Origin: Chloroflexota bacterium
GTDB lineage: Bacteria > Chloroflexota > Anaerolineae > UBA1429
Direction: 5' to 3'
NCBI GenBank assembly: GCA_012513595.1
Contig: JAAZBY010000594.1
Coordinates: 1 to 6,651 of the forward strand
Length of the DNA: 6,651 nt
Shown here: in pieces, positions 184-6,651 of the stretch
How the letters are laid out: the number at the start of each line of letters is the position of its first letter
Position numbering within the stretch: the stretch's first letter is position 1
Made by a program: the position numbers and the translations under genes
Notes under the pieces: model-generated
Database searches by the model: none
What the model saw: only the letters and a program-made list of their open reading frames with translations
What the model was told of the DNA's origin: nothing

Positions 184-212
184 TTGACGTGCGCGCAAAT
201 CTTTGGTATGAT
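184..212 (+). promoter_or_regulatory. Sigma-70-type promoter of the DUF2089/pentapeptide operon
   Basis: TTGACG (184-189) and TATGAT (207-212) match the -35 and -10 consensus at five of six positions each, with an ideal 17-bp spacer. Transcription would start near 219, giving a leader of about 24 nt before the ATG at 243. The in-frame GTG at 189 lies inside the -35 element, which rules it out as the translation start. Confidence 0.8.
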
Positions 213-242: not shown

Positions 243-647
243 ATGCGCAAAATGTTGGTCAAGTGCCCGAACTGCGGCGGCAAGTTGGAGGCGACCCGCC
301 TCTCCTGTACAGCCTGTGAGACGGTCATCCTGGCCCGCTACGAACCCTGCTCGTTCTGCCGGTTGCCCGCCGAAAGCCTCGCCTTCGTCGAGGCCTTCGT
401 CCGCTATCGGGGCAACCTCAAAGAGATGGAACGGGAGATGGGCCAGTCGTACTGGGCGCTGCGCACCCAGCTGGGCGAGGTGATCCGCGAGATGGGCTTT
501 GAGGAGGGCGCCCCGGGCGAGGAGGACGAGGCCGCCCGCGCCCTGCGGCGGCGCGAAGTGCTCGATCAGCTCGAGCGCGGTGAGATCGAGGCCCCGCAGG
601 CCGCCCGGCTGCTGGGTGAGCTGCGCGCGGGCCAGGAAGCCAGATAA
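243..647 (+). CDS. DUF2089 family zinc-ribbon/HTH protein
   Basis: This 134-residue protein matches the DUF2089 family by its motifs. The N-terminus carries CxxC pairs at C8/C11, C22/C25 and C36/C39, so a zinc-ribbon-like metal-binding fold is expected. Residues about 45-86 (FVEAFVRYRGNLKEMEREMG then WALRTQLGEVI) form the family's predicted helix-turn-helix, suggesting nucleic-acid binding. After an acidic linker (88-98), residues 102-128 form a short two-helix module (REVLDQLERGEIEAPQAARL) that recurs at the N-termini of the next two proteins. The start at 243 is chosen because GGGAGG (231-236) precedes it and the promoter overlaps the longer alternative. No signal peptide or membrane segment is present, so it is likely cytoplasmic. 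It is first in a three-gene operon, 14 nt before the next start. A regulatory role is inferred from the fold; target and signal are unknown. Confidence 0.9.
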   Translation: MRKMLVKCPNCGGKLEATRLSCTACETVILARYEPCSFCRLPAESLAFVEAFVRYRGNLKEMEREMGQSYWALRTQLGEVIREMGFEEGAPGEEDEAARALRRREVLDQLERGEIEAPQAARLLGELRAGQEAR

Positions 648-661
648 GGGGAGGAAAGACC

Positions 662-1471
662 ATGCCGAGTGAGGGACTGCGCATCCTGCGCATGGTGAAG
701 GACGGCATACTGAGCGTCGAACAGGCCACGCCTTTGCTCGCAGCCCTGGGGCCTGAGGCCCCGCCCGAGCCGCCGGACGGCCCGCGCGGAGAGGACCTCG
801 TCAACCCCTGGGCGGATCCGCTGGTCGCCGAGATCGAGGCCGATGAGCCCTTTGGCTCCGGACGGCTGGACCTGCAGCGGGTGAACATCCGCGGGACCGA
901 CGTGCGCGGTGCGCGCCTGCAGGGTGCCCGCGTCGAAGACACCGACCTCTCCGGGGCCGACCTGCGCGGGGTCGACCTGACCGACACCGATCTGCGCGAT
1001 GCCAGCCTGCACGGGGCCGACCTGCGCGGGGCCGACCTGCACGGCGCCGACCTGCGCGGGGCCAGCGCCGACCACGCCGACCTGCGTGACGCCAGCCTGC
1101 CCGGCTTGAACCTGCAGGGGGCCAGCCTGCAACGGGCCCGCCTGCGCGGCGCGCGCCTGGAGCGCGCCACTCTGGCCGGGGCCTGCCTCGACGAGGCGGA
1201 CCTGCGCGAGGCGGACCTGCGCGGCGCGAACCTCACCGGCGCTGACCTGAGCGGGGCCGACCTGCGCGGCGCGGCGCTCCTGGACGCCGACCTGCACGGC
1301 GCCTCGCTCACGGGGGCCCGCTTGCGCGGGGCCGCCCTGCACGGCGCGCGGCTGGCCGGGGTCGACCTGTACGGCCAGGCGCCGGAGGACGACGCGCTCG
1401 ACCACGAAGTTAATGACGACGCCTTGTGGACCACGGACGAGCCGAGCGGCTCGGAGGAGGGAACACCATGA
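662..1471 (+). CDS. Pentapeptide-repeat protein with N-terminal SHOCT-like module
   Basis: This 269-residue protein starts with a short helical module (residues 6-29, LRILRMVKDGILSVEQATPL and onward) of the kind found at the N-termini of YvlB/LiaX-type envelope-stress proteins and at the C-terminus of DUF2089 proteins. An acidic, proline-rich linker follows (30-69). Residues 71-240 are 34 consecutive pentapeptides of the A(D/N)LxG type with no change of register, predicting a right-handed quadrilateral beta-helix of about eight and a half coils. The central hydrophobic residue is Leu, Ile or Val in every unit except one, A136. The C-terminal tail (241-269) is acidic. There is no signal peptide or membrane segment. 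GGGGAGGA (648-655) is the ribosome binding site, and the stop overlaps the next start as ATGA. Pentapeptide proteins such as MfpA and Qnr bind DNA gyrase, but nothing here proves that role; a scaffold or partner-binding solenoid is equally possible. Confidence 0.9.
   Translation: MPSEGLRILRMVKDGILSVEQATPLLAALGPEAPPEPPDGPRGEDLVNPWADPLVAEIEADEPFGSGRLDLQRVNIRGTDVRGARLQGARVEDTDLSGADLRGVDLTDTDLRDASLHGADLRGADLHGADLRGASADHADLRDASLPGLNLQGASLQRARLRGARLERATLAGACLDEADLREADLRGANLTGADLSGADLRGAALLDADLHGASLTGARLRGAALHGARLAGVDLYGQAPEDDALDHEVNDDALWTTDEPSGSEEGTP
872..1381 (+). repeat. 34 tandem pentapeptide-coding units
   Basis: Fifteen-base units coding xDLRG-type pentapeptides run without interruption across residues 71-240 of the first pentapeptide protein. 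The DNA is itself strongly repetitive (GCCGACCTGCGCGGG and close variants), which explains the long open frames on the opposite strand through this stretch. Confidence 0.9.
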
Positions 1472-2574
1472 GCGAGGAACAGACCCGCATCCTGACCATG
1501 CTGCAAGAGGGCAAGATCACCGCCGAGGAGGCCATGGGCCTGCTGGAGGCGCTGGGCGCCTCGGGCCGGGGCCCCGCGGAGGGCCAGGAGGGCCCCGGCG
1601 CGGCGCCCGCTGGCGAGCCGGAGAGCCCCTGGAGCGAAGAGAAGGCCGAGCCGGCCGCTGAGCCCGGCGCCGAGCGGACGGACTGGGAGGAGCGCCAGCG
1701 CATCCGCATGGAGCGGCGGGCCGAACGCCTGGCCGAGCACGCCCAGCGGGCGGGCGAACGCGCCGCGCGCGCCGCAGAGCGGGCCACGCGCCACGCCATG
1801 CCGCGCCCGCCACGGCCGCCCTTCGGCCCCGAGTTCGGCAGCGCCATCGGGAGCGCCATCAGCGGGGCCATGCGCGGGGCCTTTGGGGCCTTCCGGCACG
1901 GCCTCAACCTGATGGGCACCGACCTCTCTGGCGCGCAGCTGGAGGGCGTGCAGCTGGAGGGCGCCAACCTGATGGGCGCCGACCTCTCTGACGCCAACCT
2001 GCGCAACGCCGACCTGCGTGACGCCAGCCTCACCGGCGCCAACCTGTCCGGCGCCAACCTGGAGGGCGCCAACCTGCGCGGGGCGGGCCTGCAGGGGGCC
2101 GACCTGCACGACACCGACATGCACGGGTTTGACCTGCAGGGCCTCTCGGCGCAGGGTGCAGACCTGCGCGGGGTGCACCTGGAGGGGGCCACGCTGGAGG
2201 GCGCCGGCCTACAGGGCGCTGACCTGCGCGGCGCCAACCTGCGGGAGGCCAACCTGCGCGGCGCCAACCTGCAGGGCACCGACCTGCGCGACGCCGTCCT
2301 GCAGGGGGCCGACCTGGAGGGCGCCAACCTGATGGGCGCCGATATCCGCGGGCTGGACCTCACCGGCGTGAACCTGCGCGGCGTCAGCCTGGCCGGCGTG
2401 GACCTGCGCCAGGTCGACCTGCAGGGCCTGCTGCGGCACCGCAAGCCAGCCGAGCCGGAAGAACCCACGGCTGCGCCGGGCGCCGAGGCCAGGGAGCCCG
2501 AGCCCCCGGCCGAGGAGGAACCCTTCGGCGTGGATACCGAGGAGCCGCCCGCCGGAACCTACCCGGAAGAGTAA
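1468..2574 (+). CDS. Pentapeptide-repeat protein with SHOCT-like module and charged helical linker
   Basis: This 368-residue paralogue of the preceding protein opens with the same module (residues 5-29, QTRILTMLQEGKITAEEAMG and onward). A Gly/Pro/Glu-rich linker (30-70) leads to a long Arg/Glu/Ala-rich predicted helix (72-110), possibly a coiled coil. Next come a proline-rich stretch (111-121) and a Gly/Ala/Phe-rich weakly amphipathic segment (122-146) that might touch a membrane or partner. Residues 148-322 hold 35 pentapeptides in one register, with Ala in place of the central Leu only at 228. The tail (323-368) is Pro/Glu-rich and acidic. The start is the ATG inside ATGA at 1468-1471, behind GGAGGAGGG (1453-1461), so translation is probably coupled to the previous gene. 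A GTG at 1426 would add 14 residues but lacks this spacing and disrupts the alignment with the paralogue's module. No signal peptide is seen. Function is unknown. Confidence 0.9.
   Translation: MSEEQTRILTMLQEGKITAEEAMGLLEALGASGRGPAEGQEGPGAAPAGEPESPWSEEKAEPAAEPGAERTDWEERQRIRMERRAERLAEHAQRAGERAARAAERATRHAMPRPPRPPFGPEFGSAIGSAISGAMRGAFGAFRHGLNLMGTDLSGAQLEGVQLEGANLMGADLSDANLRNADLRDASLTGANLSGANLEGANLRGAGLQGADLHDTDMHGFDLQGLSAQGADLRGVHLEGATLEGAGLQGADLRGANLREANLRGANLQGTDLRDAVLQGADLEGANLMGADIRGLDLTGVNLRGVSLAGVDLRQVDLQGLLRHRKPAEPEEPTAAPGAEAREPEPPAEEEPFGVDTEEPPAGTYPEE
1909..2433 (+). repeat. 35 tandem pentapeptide-coding units with long exact DNA repeats
   Basis: The units code for residues 148-322 of the second pentapeptide protein. 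Two exact 29-base copies lie at 1954-1982 and 2314-2342, 360 nt apart, which equals 24 pentapeptides or six solenoid coils. A 25-base segment at 1906-1930 recurs at 1966-1990 with one difference, 60 nt apart, which equals one coil. The spacing suggests growth by duplication of whole coils. Confidence 0.85.
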
Positions 2575-2652: not shown

Positions 2653-3690
2653 CTAGCGTGTTGCCCCGGCGCCCCAGGCAACCAGGGCGTCCCGCTGGGC
2701 GAGGAGGTTGGCGCGCGGGGTGCCGTCGGGGATCTCACAACCCGCGGCGCTGAGGGCCCGGGGGCCTCCGCGGCGCAGGCACTCGGCCACGGCGCCGCGG
2801 ACCTCGCCGGGCGTGCCCTGGAGCATCACGGCGACGGGGTCAAAGTTGCCGCAGACGGCCGGGCCGTCCGCGCAGGCGGTGGCCGCCGCGGAGAGGTCCA
2901 CCATCCAGTCGATATCGACAATATCGGCGCCCGAGGCGGCCATGTCTCCCAGGATGCGGGCCGTGTTCCCGCAGATGTGCAGGCGCGCCAGGGCGCCCTC
3001 CTCGTGGACGGCGGCAAAGATGCGCCGCTCGTAGGGCAGGGCCAGCTCGCGGTAGAGGCGTGGGGCGACCTGGGAGGCCAACGCGTCGCCCAGGCCGATG
3101 ATCGTGGCCCCGGCGCGCACCTGCTCGCGCGCAAAGGAGATCGCCAGTTCCGCGCAGCGCTCGAGGAGCTCGCCGACCCACGCGGGGCGGTCGTAGAGGT
3201 CGACCAGCAGGTTGGCGGCGCCGCGCAGGTCGGCGGCCTCGGCCAGGGCGCCCTCCACCCAGCCCAGCACCGGCACCTGGCCGCCGACGCGCTCGGCCAG
3301 GAGGCGCGTGGCCTCCAGCCGGTCGGCCATGCGGCGGCCCGCGTGGGGCGCGGGGAAGACCAGGCGAGAGAGGTCCGTGCCATCGGCCAGGAGGGGGCGG
3401 GCCAGCACCGGCAGGCCGTCGGCGGGGAAGCGGACCGTGTCGGGCGCGCCCGAGGCGGCGGCGATGTCGGCCGCCTCGCGGTAGGGGTCCGAGATGGTCT
3501 GCACCACGTCGAGGTCAAAGGCCTCCAGCGCGGCGAGGTTGGCCTCGGCGAGGACGCGGTGGTCCAGATAGTACTGCGAGAGGGGGGCGCCGATGAGGTG
3601 GGCGGCGTAGGTCATCAGGATGTCCAGGTTGGGCGGGCGGTCAACCGGGTGGCCGCGCAGGCGGGCGTGCAGGCGTTCGGTGCTGTTCAC
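2653..3690 (-). CDS. Uroporphyrinogen-decarboxylase-fold methyltransferase (MtaA/CmuA-like)
   Basis: This 345-residue protein is of full length for the URO-D superfamily. It shows the zinc-binding signature of corrinoid-linked methyltransferases such as MtaA, MtbA and CmuA: H238-x-C240 in HICGNT and a distal C318 in AAGCEIPDGTP. GDALAS (201-206) and GNFDP (281-285) are further family-typical loops. In characterised relatives the zinc activates a thiol that accepts a methyl group from a methylated corrinoid protein. True haem-pathway HemE lacks this His-x-Cys site, so a role in haem synthesis is unlikely. The substrate cannot be told from sequence, and no corrinoid protein or MtaB-type partner lies in the window. 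The start is GTG at 3690, forming GTGA with the stop of the upstream acetyltransferase gene, with GAGGA a few bases before it; translation is probably coupled. It is expected to be cytoplasmic. Confidence 0.88.
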   Translation of the reverse strand: MNSTERLHARLRGHPVDRPPNLDILMTYAAHLIGAPLSQYYLDHRVLAEANLAALEAFDLDVVQTISDPYREAADIAAASGAPDTVRFPADGLPVLARPLLADGTDLSRLVFPAPHAGRRMADRLEATRLLAERVGGQVPVLGWVEGALAEAADLRGAANLLVDLYDRPAWVGELLERCAELAISFAREQVRAGATIIGLGDALASQVAPRLYRELALPYERRIFAAVHEEGALARLHICGNTARILGDMAASGADIVDIDWMVDLSAAATACADGPAVCGNFDPVAVMLQGTPGEVRGAVAECLRRGGPRALSAAGCEIPDGTPRANLLAQRDALVAWGAGATR

Positions 3691-4223
3691 TGGGCGTCCT
3701 CTCTCTCGGGGCCGGGCCTATCGAGCCGCCACAGGTACAGGCCGCGGCGCAGCCCGAAGCGGCGCAAGCCCGCCTTGGTCAGCACCCGCTGTGAGGCGAC
3801 GTTGTCGGCACGGGTATCGGCAAAGACCGTGCGGCAGCCCGGCTGGGCAAAGGCCCAGGCGATCAGGGCGCGGACGGCCTCGGTCGTGTAGCCCTGGGAA
3901 CGGTAGTGCTCCGAGATGCCGTAGCCGATCTCGACCACCCCCTCGGGGCTGGGGGCGCCTTTGAAGCCGAGCAGGCCGATGCCCAGGTTCCCCTCCCGCA
4001 GGATCATCAGCCAGGAGGTGTGCCAGGGCCAGTCGGGCGGCGGGGCAAGGGCCATGCGGCGCAGCTTGACGCGGATCGCCTCACGAGAGGCGTCAGAGAC
4101 CAGGTCGGCACAGGCCGCCAGGCCCAGGGCCCCTTCGACCGCCTGGGGGCCGCGCAGGCAGGCGGCCAGGGCTTCCGGCTCCAGCGGGAGCAGCCGGAGC
4201 CTGTCGGTGACGAGAGCATCCAT
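3687..4223 (-). CDS. GNAT family N-acetyltransferase, RimJ/RimL type
   Basis: This 178-residue protein opens with the typical TDRLRLLPL strand of RimJ/RimL-like acetyltransferases. Motif A follows: strand VVEIGYGI (96-103), then the acetyl-CoA pyrophosphate loop at about 108-113 (RSQGYT) and helix TEAVRALIAWAF. Motif B is seen at 141-157 (NVASQRVLTKAGLRRFG), the usual N-x-x-S-x-x-x-x-x-K-x-G pattern. The family transfers acetyl from acetyl-CoA to an amine, which may be a protein N-terminus or a small molecule; the acceptor here is unknown. The ATG at 4223 is chosen because GGAGGAGG lies on the minus strand at 4240-4233 and the protein then begins at the family's normal N-terminus; longer in-frame extensions show no homology. 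It is the first gene of a two-gene operon and overlaps the methyltransferase start by four bases. Any functional link between the two is not evident. Confidence 0.9.
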   Translation of the reverse strand: MDALVTDRLRLLPLEPEALAACLRGPQAVEGALGLAACADLVSDASREAIRVKLRRMALAPPPDWPWHTSWLMILREGNLGIGLLGFKGAPSPEGVVEIGYGISEHYRSQGYTTEAVRALIAWAFAQPGCRTVFADTRADNVASQRVLTKAGLRRFGLRRGLYLWRLDRPGPEREDAQ

Positions 4224-4602: not shown

Positions 4603-6651
4603 ATGAACGTACGGGTGACCCGGTCACAGGCGGCGCTGCGGGTGCTGGCGCTGGTAGTCGTGCTGACCGCCATGGTCACAGGTCTGGTGTCGGCGCAGGC
4701 CTGGCCCAACTGCGGGTGGGGCTGCACGGCAAACGACGTGACGGTATCGCGGTTCTGGCTGGCCGACGCGGCGGGCAATCCGTTGACGTCGACCTGCACG
4801 CCGGGGCAACCGGTCACGGCGTACCTGTGGGCCGAGATCGTCAGCACGCAGAACTCGACGCGCTATGCCACGGCCTTTATGGCCACCTACACGGTGGGGA
4901 GTAACGTGTACTCCCTGGATACCTGCGTGGCCCCGAGCAACATCTCGGGCACCGGCGTCTACGACATCAACGTCGGCCAGGTAGAGTGGGCCTGCGGGCA
5001 GGAGATGAAGATCGTCAGCGGGGTCCTGGCCTGGACGACGAAGAAGAATGTCGTGTGCGATCCCGCGACGCCGCGGAACTGCGCGGACTATATCAAGTCC
5101 AAGTGCTGGATGATCCCCGAGGCGGTCATCGTCGAGGCGCCGCTGGTGGCCGACTTTTCGGCCAGCGAGGTCTGCCTGGGCGAGCCGACCATCTTCACCA
5201 ACCTGACCACGGGCGGCCGCCTGCCCTACGCGTACCAGTGGAACTTGGGTGACGGCGGCGCGAGCACGGCGGCCAACCCAACGCACACTTATGCCGCGGC
5301 GGGCACCTACACGGTGACGCTGACGGTGAACGATGCGCAGGTGCCCCCGGCCGTGGATACGCAGACGCGCACGGTGACGGTGCACCCGAACCCGGTGGCG
5401 GCCATCACGCCGTCGGCGGCGGTGCTCACCTGTGCCGAGCCGTCGGCGGTTCTGGTGGCCTCAGGCGGCGGCACGTACGCGTGGAACACCGGCGCGACCA
5501 CGGCCTCGATCACCGTGGCGGCCGCCGGCACCTACACCGTGACCGTGACGAACGAAGCAGGCTGCACCGACACGGCCACCGCCGTGGTGACGGAGAACAA
5601 GGCGGCGCCGGTGGCCAGCATCGCCTCTTCGGCCACCCAGCTCACCTGTGCGCTGCGCAGCATCACCCTGACGGCCGGGGCCTCCGGTGGCTCGGCGCCG
5701 TACACGTACCTGTGGAGCACCGGCGCCACGACGGCGTCGATCTCGGTGACTGCGCCGGGCACCTACTCGCTCACGGTGACGGGCGCCAACGGCTGCCAGG
5801 ACACGAAAGAGATCACCATCACGCAGGACATCGCCGCGCCGGCCGTGGGGATTGGCGCGACGGCGACGCAGCTGACCTGCGCGGTGCCGACGGCGACCTT
5901 GACGGCGAACGTGACGGGCGGTACCGGCCCCTATGCCTACGCCTGGAGCACCGGCGAGACCGGGGAGTCGATCGTGGTCGACGCCCCCGGCACCTACTCG
6001 GTGACGGTGACGGGCGCCAACGGCTGCAGCGGCCGGGACGACATCACCATCACGCAGGACATCTCTGTTCCGAGCGTCGCCATCGAGGCGACGGCGGAGG
6101 AACTGACCTGCGCGCTGCCGACGGTTACCCTGACGGCGGACGTGACGGGCGGGGTCGCCCCGCTGGCCTACCTCTGGAGCACCGGCTCTACGGAGCAGTC
6201 GATCGTGGTGAACGCCCCCGGCACCTACTCGGTGACGGTGACGGGCGCCAACGGCTGCGAGGATACGGATGAGATCGTCATCACGCAGGACATCGCCGCG
6301 CCGGCCGTCGCGATCGGTGCGTCGGTGACGGAACTGACCTGCGCAGTGCCGACAGCGACGCTGACGGCGAACGTGACGGGCGGCACTGGCCCCTTCACCT
6401 ACGCCTGGAGCACGGGTGAGAGCAGTGAGTCGATCGTGGTCGACGCCTCCGGCACCTACTCGGTGACGGTGACGGGCGCCAACGGCTGCGAGGATGGCGA
6501 CGAGATCACCATCACGCAGGACATTGCCGCCCCGAGCGTCGAGATCGGCGCGTCGGCGACGGAGCTGACCTGCGCGGTGCCGACGGCGACCTTGACCGCG
6601 AACGTGACGGGGGGTACCGGCCCCTTCACCTACGCCTGGAGCACCGGCGCC
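4603..6651 (+). CDS. Secreted PKD and SprB-like repeat protein, probable surface adhesin (3' end beyond window)
   Basis: The frame is open for 683 codons from ATG 4603 to the window edge, so the gene is partial at its 3' end. GGGAGGAA (4593-4600) supports the start. Residues 1-33 form a signal peptide: basic start, hydrophobic core at about 11-29, and an AQA-W cleavage site after 33. Residues 34-179 form a domain I do not recognise, with eight cysteines (37, 41, 65, 108, 131, 152, 160, 168) that could form disulfides. Residues 183-262 are one PKD domain, with W213-N-L-G-D-G218 and NPTHTYAAAGTYTVTLTV. From residue 261 a tandem array of Ig-like units resembling SprB repeats begins. Proteins built this way are typically exported and work in adhesion, gliding or surface coating. 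The C-terminal anchoring or sorting signal lies outside the window, so the export route past the inner membrane is unknown. Confidence 0.88.
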   Translation, partial: MNVRVTRSQAALRVLALVVVLTAMVTGLVSAQAWPNCGWGCTANDVTVSRFWLADAAGNPLTSTCTPGQPVTAYLWAEIVSTQNSTRYATAFMATYTVGSNVYSLDTCVAPSNISGTGVYDINVGQVEWACGQEMKIVSGVLAWTTKKNVVCDPATPRNCADYIKSKCWMIPEAVIVEAPLVADFSASEVCLGEPTIFTNLTTGGRLPYAYQWNLGDGGASTAANPTHTYAAAGTYTVTLTVNDAQVPPAVDTQTRTVTVHPNPVAAITPSAAVLTCAEPSAVLVASGGGTYAWNTGATTASITVAAAGTYTVTVTNEAGCTDTATAVVTENKAAPVASIASSATQLTCALRSITLTAGASGGSAPYTYLWSTGATTASISVTAPGTYSLTVTGANGCQDTKEITITQDIAAPAVGIGATATQLTCAVPTATLTANVTGGTGPYAYAWSTGETGESIVVDAPGTYSVTVTGANGCSGRDDITITQDISVPSVAIEATAEELTCALPTVTLTADVTGGVAPLAYLWSTGSTEQSIVVNAPGTYSVTVTGANGCEDTDEIVITQDIAAPAVAIGASVTELTCAVPTATLTANVTGGTGPFTYAWSTGESSESIVVDASGTYSVTVTGANGCEDGDEITITQDIAAPSVEIGASATELTCAVPTATLTANVTGGTGPFTYAWSTGA
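5383..6651 (+). repeat. Tandem 231-bp repeats coding 77-residue Ig-like/SprB-like units
   Basis: Units start at 5383 (72 codons, most divergent), 5599, 5830, 6061, 6292 and 6523 (cut by the window edge). All complete units after the first are exactly 77 codons. Each carries LTC at unit position 17 and, where complete, NGC near position 66, with YxWSTG and GTYSVTVTGANGC between them; the two cysteines could pair. Similarity is high even in DNA: a 47-base segment at 5981-6027 is identical at 6212-6258, and another 47 bases at 6218-6264 recur at 6449-6495. This indicates recent duplication or gene conversion. Confidence 0.92.

What the first reader, a model, noticed from the sequence alone, without database searches (positions are those of the whole stretch)
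243..2574. Three-gene operon in which a DUF2089 regulator and two pentapeptide solenoids share one helical module
Seen: the C-terminus of the DUF2089 protein (REVLDQLERGEIEAPQAARL) and the N-termini of both pentapeptide proteins (LRILRMVKDGILSVEQATPL; TRILTMLQEGKITAEEAMGL) follow one pattern, (R/E)-[IV]-L-x2-[LV]-x2-G-x-[IL]-x3-x-A-x2-L-L. The genes are tightly packed behind one strong promoter. Known: this SHOCT-like module also precedes the beta-rich DUF4097 domain of YvlB/LiaX envelope-stress proteins. Inference: here the beta-solenoid of a pentapeptide protein takes the place of DUF4097, and the common module may let the three products bind each other, giving a regulator plus two paired solenoid effectors. 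I know of no described system of this form.
Basis: partly seen in the sequence, partly recalled or inferred. Interest (0 to 1): 0.72.

Follow-up and report, generated by a model that had tools for sequence, protein, structure and literature searches.

The report
Regulator operon with two pentapeptide solenoids
A three-gene bacterial operon joins a probable DNA-binding regulator to two spring-shaped pentapeptide proteins that carry the same small helical tag, a variant of a stress-operon layout already described in which a different beta-rich domain takes the place of the solenoids.

Summary
Gene A (243-647) is a DUF2089 protein (zinc ribbon, HTH, C-terminal helical module). Genes B (662-1471) and C (1468-2574) each carry an N-terminal copy of that module plus a pentapeptide beta-solenoid. 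Pfam names the module PF22746 (SHOCT-like_DUF2089-C): over cut-off in B and C, below it in A; A's family profile does match the N-terminal modules (hhalign E 5e-10). In 58 of 60 fetched Bacillota DUF2089 loci a SHOCT-like gene follows on the same strand, and 26 have two or more. So regulator plus module-bearing partner is a conserved operon, already described by Ravi et al. 2024 with Toastrack (DUF4097) partners. New here: the partner domain is a pentapeptide solenoid, twice. I found no other such case: 0 of 104 SHOCT-like ORFs in those loci, no listed match spanning both parts in 398 Bacillota genomes. The likely home phylum, Chloroflexota, could not be searched. That the three products bind each other is untested: a coevolution test was uninformative, and first published tests of the related SHOCT domain did not support oligomerisation. 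Verdict: new variant of a known kind, moderate interest.

The parts
184..212 (+). sigma-70-type promoter-like site TTGACG-N17-TATGAT
   Evidence: consensus match only
243..647 (+). gene A: DUF2089 regulator, 134 aa
   Evidence: SD-like GGGAGG 231-236 read
264..359 (+). A zinc ribbon (PF22747), residues 8-39
   Evidence: 42.1 bits, cut-off 27.6; C11, C22, C25 invariant and C8 nearly so in 38 sequences
363..503 (+). A helix-turn-helix (PF09862), residues 41-87
   Evidence: 57.9 bits, cut-off 33.4
531..626 (+). A C-terminal SHOCT-like module, residues 97-128
   Evidence: PF22746 below cut-off, 13.6 bits; family profile match
662..1471 (+). gene B: SHOCT-like module plus pentapeptide solenoid, 269 aa
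671..751 (+). B SHOCT-like module, residues 4-30
   Evidence: PF22746 29.1 bits; helices 4-13 and 19-28 in AlphaFold2
866..1375 (+). B pentapeptide beta-solenoid, 34 pentapeptides, residues 69-238
   Evidence: PF00805 161.3 bits; register count; Foldseek 2j8k, rmsd 1.2 over 159 columns
1468..2574 (+). gene C: SHOCT-like module, linker, charged helix, pentapeptide solenoid, 368 aa
1474..1560 (+). C SHOCT-like module, residues 3-31
   Evidence: PF22746 37.4 bits; helices 3-13 and 19-31 in AlphaFold2
1666..1794 (+). C charged long helix, residues 67-109
   Evidence: composition
1900..2418 (+). C pentapeptide beta-solenoid, about 34 pentapeptides, residues 145-317
   Evidence: PF00805 182 bits
2603..2637 (.). 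16-bp hairpin between convergent genes C and D, probable terminator
   Evidence: z -6.1; no T run follows on the + strand and one search did not list it

Best explanation
This is a DUF2089/SHOCT-like operon, the kind described around Toastrack (DUF4097) envelope-stress proteins, in which the partner domain has been exchanged for a pentapeptide beta-solenoid and the partner gene is present twice. Most likely mechanism: A is a cytoplasmic zinc-ribbon/HTH transcription factor that controls its own operon and perhaps others. B and C are cytoplasmic scaffolds whose solenoids hold client proteins, and whose hairpin module brings them to the site where A is also held, either at the inner face of the membrane or on each other (rivals 1 and 2 are the two arms of this). 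Occupancy of that site by scaffolds or clients would set how much A is free to act on DNA. Shown by computation: the domains, the shared module, the gene order and the conservation of the layout. Inferred: DNA binding, localisation, any contact between the products, and the stress signal.
For: Domains. Module homology by profile-profile comparison; 13 of the 120 listed homologues of A carry a precomputed PF22746 match. Layout: 58 of 60 fetched Bacillota DUF2089 loci have a downstream same-strand SHOCT-like ORF within 4.5 kb, 26 of 60 have two or more. Of the 51 same-strand next genes picked, 46 match PF22746 and 25 match DUF4097 (its totals, 48 and 25 of 53, include the window's B and C). From the other side: the first 91 residues of C searched against 72,556 plasmid records gave 4 weak hits (E 0.08-0.9; three from one species), and all 4 lie just downstream of the DUF2089 hits of the same records. 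An Embleya (Actinomycetota) record has the same order. No signal peptide is apparent by eye in B or C. In B. subtilis, YvlB (which has DUF4097) interacted with its operon partners and with PspA and LiaH in two-hybrid tests (PMC9239133, passages).
Against: No binding evidence for any module pair. Distances of the next-gene module track A's zinc ribbon and HTH as well as A's own module (partial r 0.22-0.29 against 0.245), so coevolution shows no special contact. For the related but distinct SHOCT domain the authors' first experiments did not support oligomerisation (PMC3581485, abstract). The window has no PspC, LiaF or PspA gene. A's own module is below the Pfam cut-off. Two of the four plasmid DUF2089 regions examined, from Legionella and Phocaeicola, had no SHOCT-like neighbour detected. 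Hand selection of 60 of the 100 genomes with an over-cut-off DUF2089 match may favour well-formed loci.
Confidence: 0.5

Rival explanations
1. Direct module-to-module binding: the hairpins of A, B and C pair like a four-helix bundle, so B and C form a pair and titrate A away from DNA.
For: Same module on a regulator and its neighbours in most fetched loci. A hairpin of about 28 residues with conserved Leu/Ile positions is small for a fold of its own (inference). Ravi et al. suggest a role in assembling complexes (abstract).
Against: No contact evidence; coevolution test not specific; the related SHOCT domain was not supported as an oligomerisation domain.
Confidence: 0.25
2. Membrane tether only: the module docks each protein separately on the membrane or on a host partner, with no contact between the three products.
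For: Prediction of Ravi et al. 2024 that SHOCT-like domains anchor disparate domains to the inner leaflet (passages). C has a charged helix and a glycine/alanine-rich stretch before its solenoid.
Against: The stretch is only weakly hydrophobic (mean 0.47, moment 0.40 on a scale typed from recall). No lipid-binding data. It does not by itself explain why the regulator shares the module.
Confidence: 0.3
3. DNA-mimic gyrase protection: B and C are Qnr/MfpA-like proteins under a drug-responsive regulator.
For: Same solenoid fold; MfpA and Qnr structures are among the Foldseek matches. C's solenoid is net -14.
Against: NCBIfam Qnr and MfpA models score far below their cut-offs (B: Qnr 49.4 of 240, MfpA 80.1 of 360; C: 59.5 and 71.9). 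B's solenoid is nearly balanced, 27 acidic to 21 basic residues.
Confidence: 0.05
4. Chance fusion: ordinary pentapeptide proteins picked up a common N-terminal tag and happen to lie behind a DUF2089 gene in this one genome.
For: No other SHOCT-like pentapeptide protein found: 0 of 120 listed hits of B (of 7199) carry PF22746; no listed match spans both parts in 398 Bacillota genomes; none of the 30 best pentapeptide loci from that search has a module or DUF2089 match at E 0.01.
Against: It happened in two adjacent genes in the exact layout of the conserved operon; my searches could not reach Chloroflexota genomes.
Confidence: 0.1

Closest known systems
DUF2089-Toastrack (DUF4097) gene contexts of Ravi et al. 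2024 (PMC11237479)
   Same: Zinc ribbon-HTH-SHOCT-like regulator in an operon with SHOCT-like partner proteins that carry a beta-rich domain
   Different: Partner domain here is a pentapeptide solenoid, in two tandem genes; no DUF4097, PspC or LiaF gene in the window
yvlABCD operon of B. subtilis (core sigma-W regulon, PMC3498285, passages)
   Same: PF22746 rings in B. subtilis in the control searches; YvlB has DUF4097
   Different: PF09862 did not ring in B. subtilis, and PMC9239133 calls the other three products putative membrane proteins
HAAS-pentapeptide proteins of Firmicutes (AOH56696.1, named in PMC11237479)
   Same: A small helical signalling module combined with pentapeptide repeats, in a system with a transcription factor
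   Different: HAAS is another domain and its partner is a PadR-like wHTH, not DUF2089
Alr5209 family pentapeptide repeat protein (NCBIfam NF052603)
   Same: B passes its cut-off (129.2 of 125 bits) and C just misses it (119.7), both by matches to part of the solenoid
   Different: The model has 113 positions and the matches cover none of the N-terminal module; repeats alone may carry the score
LiaX of Enterococcus (NCBIfam NF038025)
   Same: Weak match of residues 3-95 of C to its N-terminus (11.9 bits, E 0.065)
   Different: Far below the cut-off of 350; described as a surface protein whose N-terminal domain is released to the milieu

Membership tests
DUF2089 regulator | zinc ribbon PF22747 and HTH PF09862 over cut-off | tested here: met
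   42.1 (27.6) and 57.9 (33.4) bits
DUF2089 regulator | C-terminal SHOCT-like module over cut-off | tested here: inconclusive
   13.6 of 27 bits in A; 13 of 120 listed homologues carry the match; profile-profile match
SHOCT-like_DUF2089-C (PF22746) | B and C over the curated cut-off | tested here: met
   29.1 and 37.4 bits, cut-off 27
Pentapeptide repeat proteins (PF00805) | A(D/N)LXX repeats forming a beta-solenoid | tested here: met
   161.3 and 182 bits; 31 of 34 and 33 of 34 central residues L/F/M/I; models
Alr5209 family (NF052603) | NCBIfam cut-off of 125 bits | tested here: inconclusive
   B 129.2, C 119.7; low-complexity repeats may inflate the score
DUF2089-Toastrack operon | DUF2089 gene followed by a SHOCT-like partner gene | tested here: met
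DUF2089-Toastrack operon | partner carries DUF4097 | tested here: not met
   no DUF4097 match in B or C at E up to 1
PSP/Lia envelope-stress system | PspA, PspC or LiaF component in the locus | tested here: not met
   none among the six window genes scanned; rest of the genome not held
Qnr/MfpA gyrase-protecting proteins | NCBIfam cut-off | tested here: not met
DUF2089/SHOCT-like operon | physical contact between the modules, DNA binding by A | not testable with these tools
   no multimer modelling or wet assay available

The most novel reading that the evidence does not exclude
The SHOCT-like hairpin is a plug that couples one regulator to exchangeable beta-solenoid scaffolds. Toastrack and pentapeptide proteins are then interchangeable outputs of one chassis, and in this lineage two pentapeptide solenoids joined by the plug hold the regulator and release it on stress.
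Probability: 0.2. Interest if true: 0.6.

Novelty: new variant of a known kind. Interest (0 to 1): 0.42.

Why it matters
Many pentapeptide repeat proteins have no known task (recalled). Tying two of them to a conserved regulator operon gives a testable link to envelope-stress-type signalling, and the exchange of Toastrack for another beta-solenoid suggests that a long beta-surface, rather than the Toastrack fold itself, is what such operons need. It also offers a simple test of what the SHOCT-like module does, since a regulator and its partners carry it together.

Tried and rejected
Chloroflexota context: no whole genome is held for the window. The single genome-contig scan returned one locus, L001 from Alteribacillus, in which the DUF2089 and module HMMs found nothing at E 0.001, so it is probably a spurious match. 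Two viral-contig scans confirmed no relative among 22 and 26 candidate stretches. So the recurrence of the pentapeptide form in the likely home phylum is untested.

Protein searches: residues 1-60 of C gave 67 candidates and none at E 0.001 or better. Whole B was swamped by generic pentapeptide proteins, 7199 hits of which 120 were listed, none with PF22746; this says little about rare fusions.

Bacillota negative: one search scored at most five candidates in most genomes and did not list all matches; in the 30 best pentapeptide loci from it, all 30 with a pentapeptide ORF, no module or DUF2089 match reached E 0.01 within about 1.5 kb.

Coevolution: the first run had DUF2089 columns out of register and is discarded; the repeat shows the controls as strong as the test, so no claim is made.

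Solved structures by sequence: A's family gave 7 weak matches, the best E 0.005 over the zinc ribbon; the partner-gene alignment gave nothing below E 0.08. The 50 Foldseek rows shown for each model are nearly all pentapeptide solenoids (one search also shows a phage tailspike and an alginate epimerase), so no solved counterpart of the module was found by these searches.

Rows dropped before counts: of the 100 Bacillota genomes with an over-cut-off DUF2089 match I fetched 60, picked by hand mostly down the ranking, skipping several near contig ends, most with very long open frames, and some others by no fixed rule. Nine of 60 had no same-strand next ORF by my greedy choice (51 of 60); 58 of 60 had a downstream SHOCT-like ORF when all ORFs were scanned, the exceptions being L039 and L043.

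Full report
What is there. The window has a compact three-gene operon at 243-2574 on the + strand. A promoter-like site at 184-212 precedes it and a 16-bp hairpin follows it at 2603-2637, just before the end of the convergent gene D. A and B are 14 bases apart; B and C share ATGA. A is a DUF2089 protein with zinc ribbon and HTH over the Pfam cut-offs. B and C are pentapeptide proteins with an N-terminal SHOCT-like module over the cut-off. AlphaFold2 without an alignment gives each a two-helix hairpin (block pLDDT 81-96), a low-confidence linker and a solenoid mostly near or above 90; overall confidence is moderate, mean pLDDT 76.6 and 75.2, pTM 0.61 and 0.50. Both solenoids have about 34 pentapeptides, with 31 and 33 of 34 central residues L, F, M or I.

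Is the module shared? Yes, with a caveat. PF22746, whose very name ties it to DUF2089 C-termini, hits B and C over cut-off and A below it. Thirteen of 120 listed homologues of A carry a PF22746 match. Single-sequence scores are mixed: an HMM from 46 Bacillota next-gene modules finds B and C beyond 3000 shuffles each, but 15 of 3000 shuffles of A score as well as A; an HMM from 60 Bacillota DUF2089 C-termini finds A and C but not B (52 of 3000 shuffles as good). Profile against profile the match is clear, E 5.3e-10 and 1.6e-11 over 27 and 28 columns.

Is the layout conserved? One search found DUF2089 over cut-off in 100 of 299 Bacillota genomes. In 60 of those 100 I fetched up to about 11 kb around the gene; the regulator was recognised in 60 of 60. 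In 58 of 60 a SHOCT-like ORF lies downstream on the same strand within 4.5 kb; 26 of 60 have two or more. This HMM was built from the same loci, but Pfam agrees: 46 of the 51 next genes match PF22746 and 25 match DUF4097. Genomes with a PF22746 match have one to six of them, so chance proximity is small (inference, not computed). From the other side, C's first 91 residues hit 4 plasmid records, weakly (E 0.08-0.9), and all four places are just behind that record's DUF2089 hit. Of four plasmid DUF2089 regions opened, Embleya and Niallia show a SHOCT-like next ORF; Legionella and Phocaeicola show none.

Is the pentapeptide form seen elsewhere? Not in what I could reach. None of the 104 downstream SHOCT-like ORFs has pentapeptide runs by a pattern that scores 21 in B and 22 in C (maximum 3 in the 104). 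A model of B plus C searched in 398 Bacillota genomes matched 142, but no listed match runs from the module into the solenoid; not all matches were listed and most genomes had at most five candidates scored. None of its 30 best pentapeptide loci has a module or DUF2089 match at E 0.01. The organisms named among the 120 listed homologues of A are Chloroflexi or Anaerolineae in 3 of 4 cases and Armatimonadota in one; Chloroflexota genomes could not be searched.

What is known. Ravi et al. 2024 (PMC11237479; abstract and passages) describe DUF2089 as zinc ribbon, HTH and SHOCT-like, in a four-gene context with Toastrack proteins across diverse lineages; [quoted passage not shown] The main text has one mention of pentapeptides, not with DUF2089; supplements were not read. 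Searches for DUF2089 (7 papers), SHOCT-like with pentapeptide repeat (1), two or more of DUF2089, SHOCT, YvlB and DUF4097 (4), the Pfam accessions or SHOCT-like domain (1), and pentapeptide repeat with operon, Chloroflexi and envelope stress (15 of 31 listed) showed no other paper on this form by title and start of abstract; most of these papers were not opened. One listed paper, PMC12864828, deals with a secreted YjbI-type pentapeptide protein of the Caulobacter envelope, a different setting (listing only).

Mechanism. I put most weight on a regulator-scaffold unit with the module as a localisation or recruitment device, and less on direct module pairing. Two-hybrid data for YvlB show that such a partner protein binds operon mates, but B. 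subtilis gave no PF09862 match, so this is not evidence about DUF2089. The coevolution test gave no specific signal, and first tests of the SHOCT domain did not support oligomerisation (abstract). A gyrase-protection role is unlikely by family cut-offs and, for B, by charge. B does pass the cut-off of one pentapeptide family, Alr5209, and C nearly does; this concerns part of the solenoid only.

Verdict. The finding is real, its general form is known, and its pentapeptide form was not seen elsewhere within my searches: a new variant of a known kind.

Noticed in passing
2653-3690 (-): URO-D domain protein, closest to MtaA/CmuA-type methyltransferase models but below their cut-offs.
   Followed up: no
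3687-4223 (-): GNAT acetyltransferase whose stop overlaps the start of the URO-D gene; probably one transcript.
   Followed up: no
4603-6651 (+), runs off the window: Long PKD/SprB-repeat protein with, by eye, an N-terminal signal sequence and closely similar repeats.
   Followed up: no
L045, L060, L062, L064, L068, L074, L078, L083, L090: Nine Bacillota loci with four successive SHOCT-like ORFs behind one DUF2089 gene, of about 115-135 and 330-355 aa.
   Followed up: partly
L034, L035, L041, L055 and similar: Bacillota next genes of about 140 aa with a SHOCT-like module and a short tail of unidentified kind; 26 of 51 next genes, 5 of them without PF22746, have no DUF4097 match at E 0.001.
   Followed up: no
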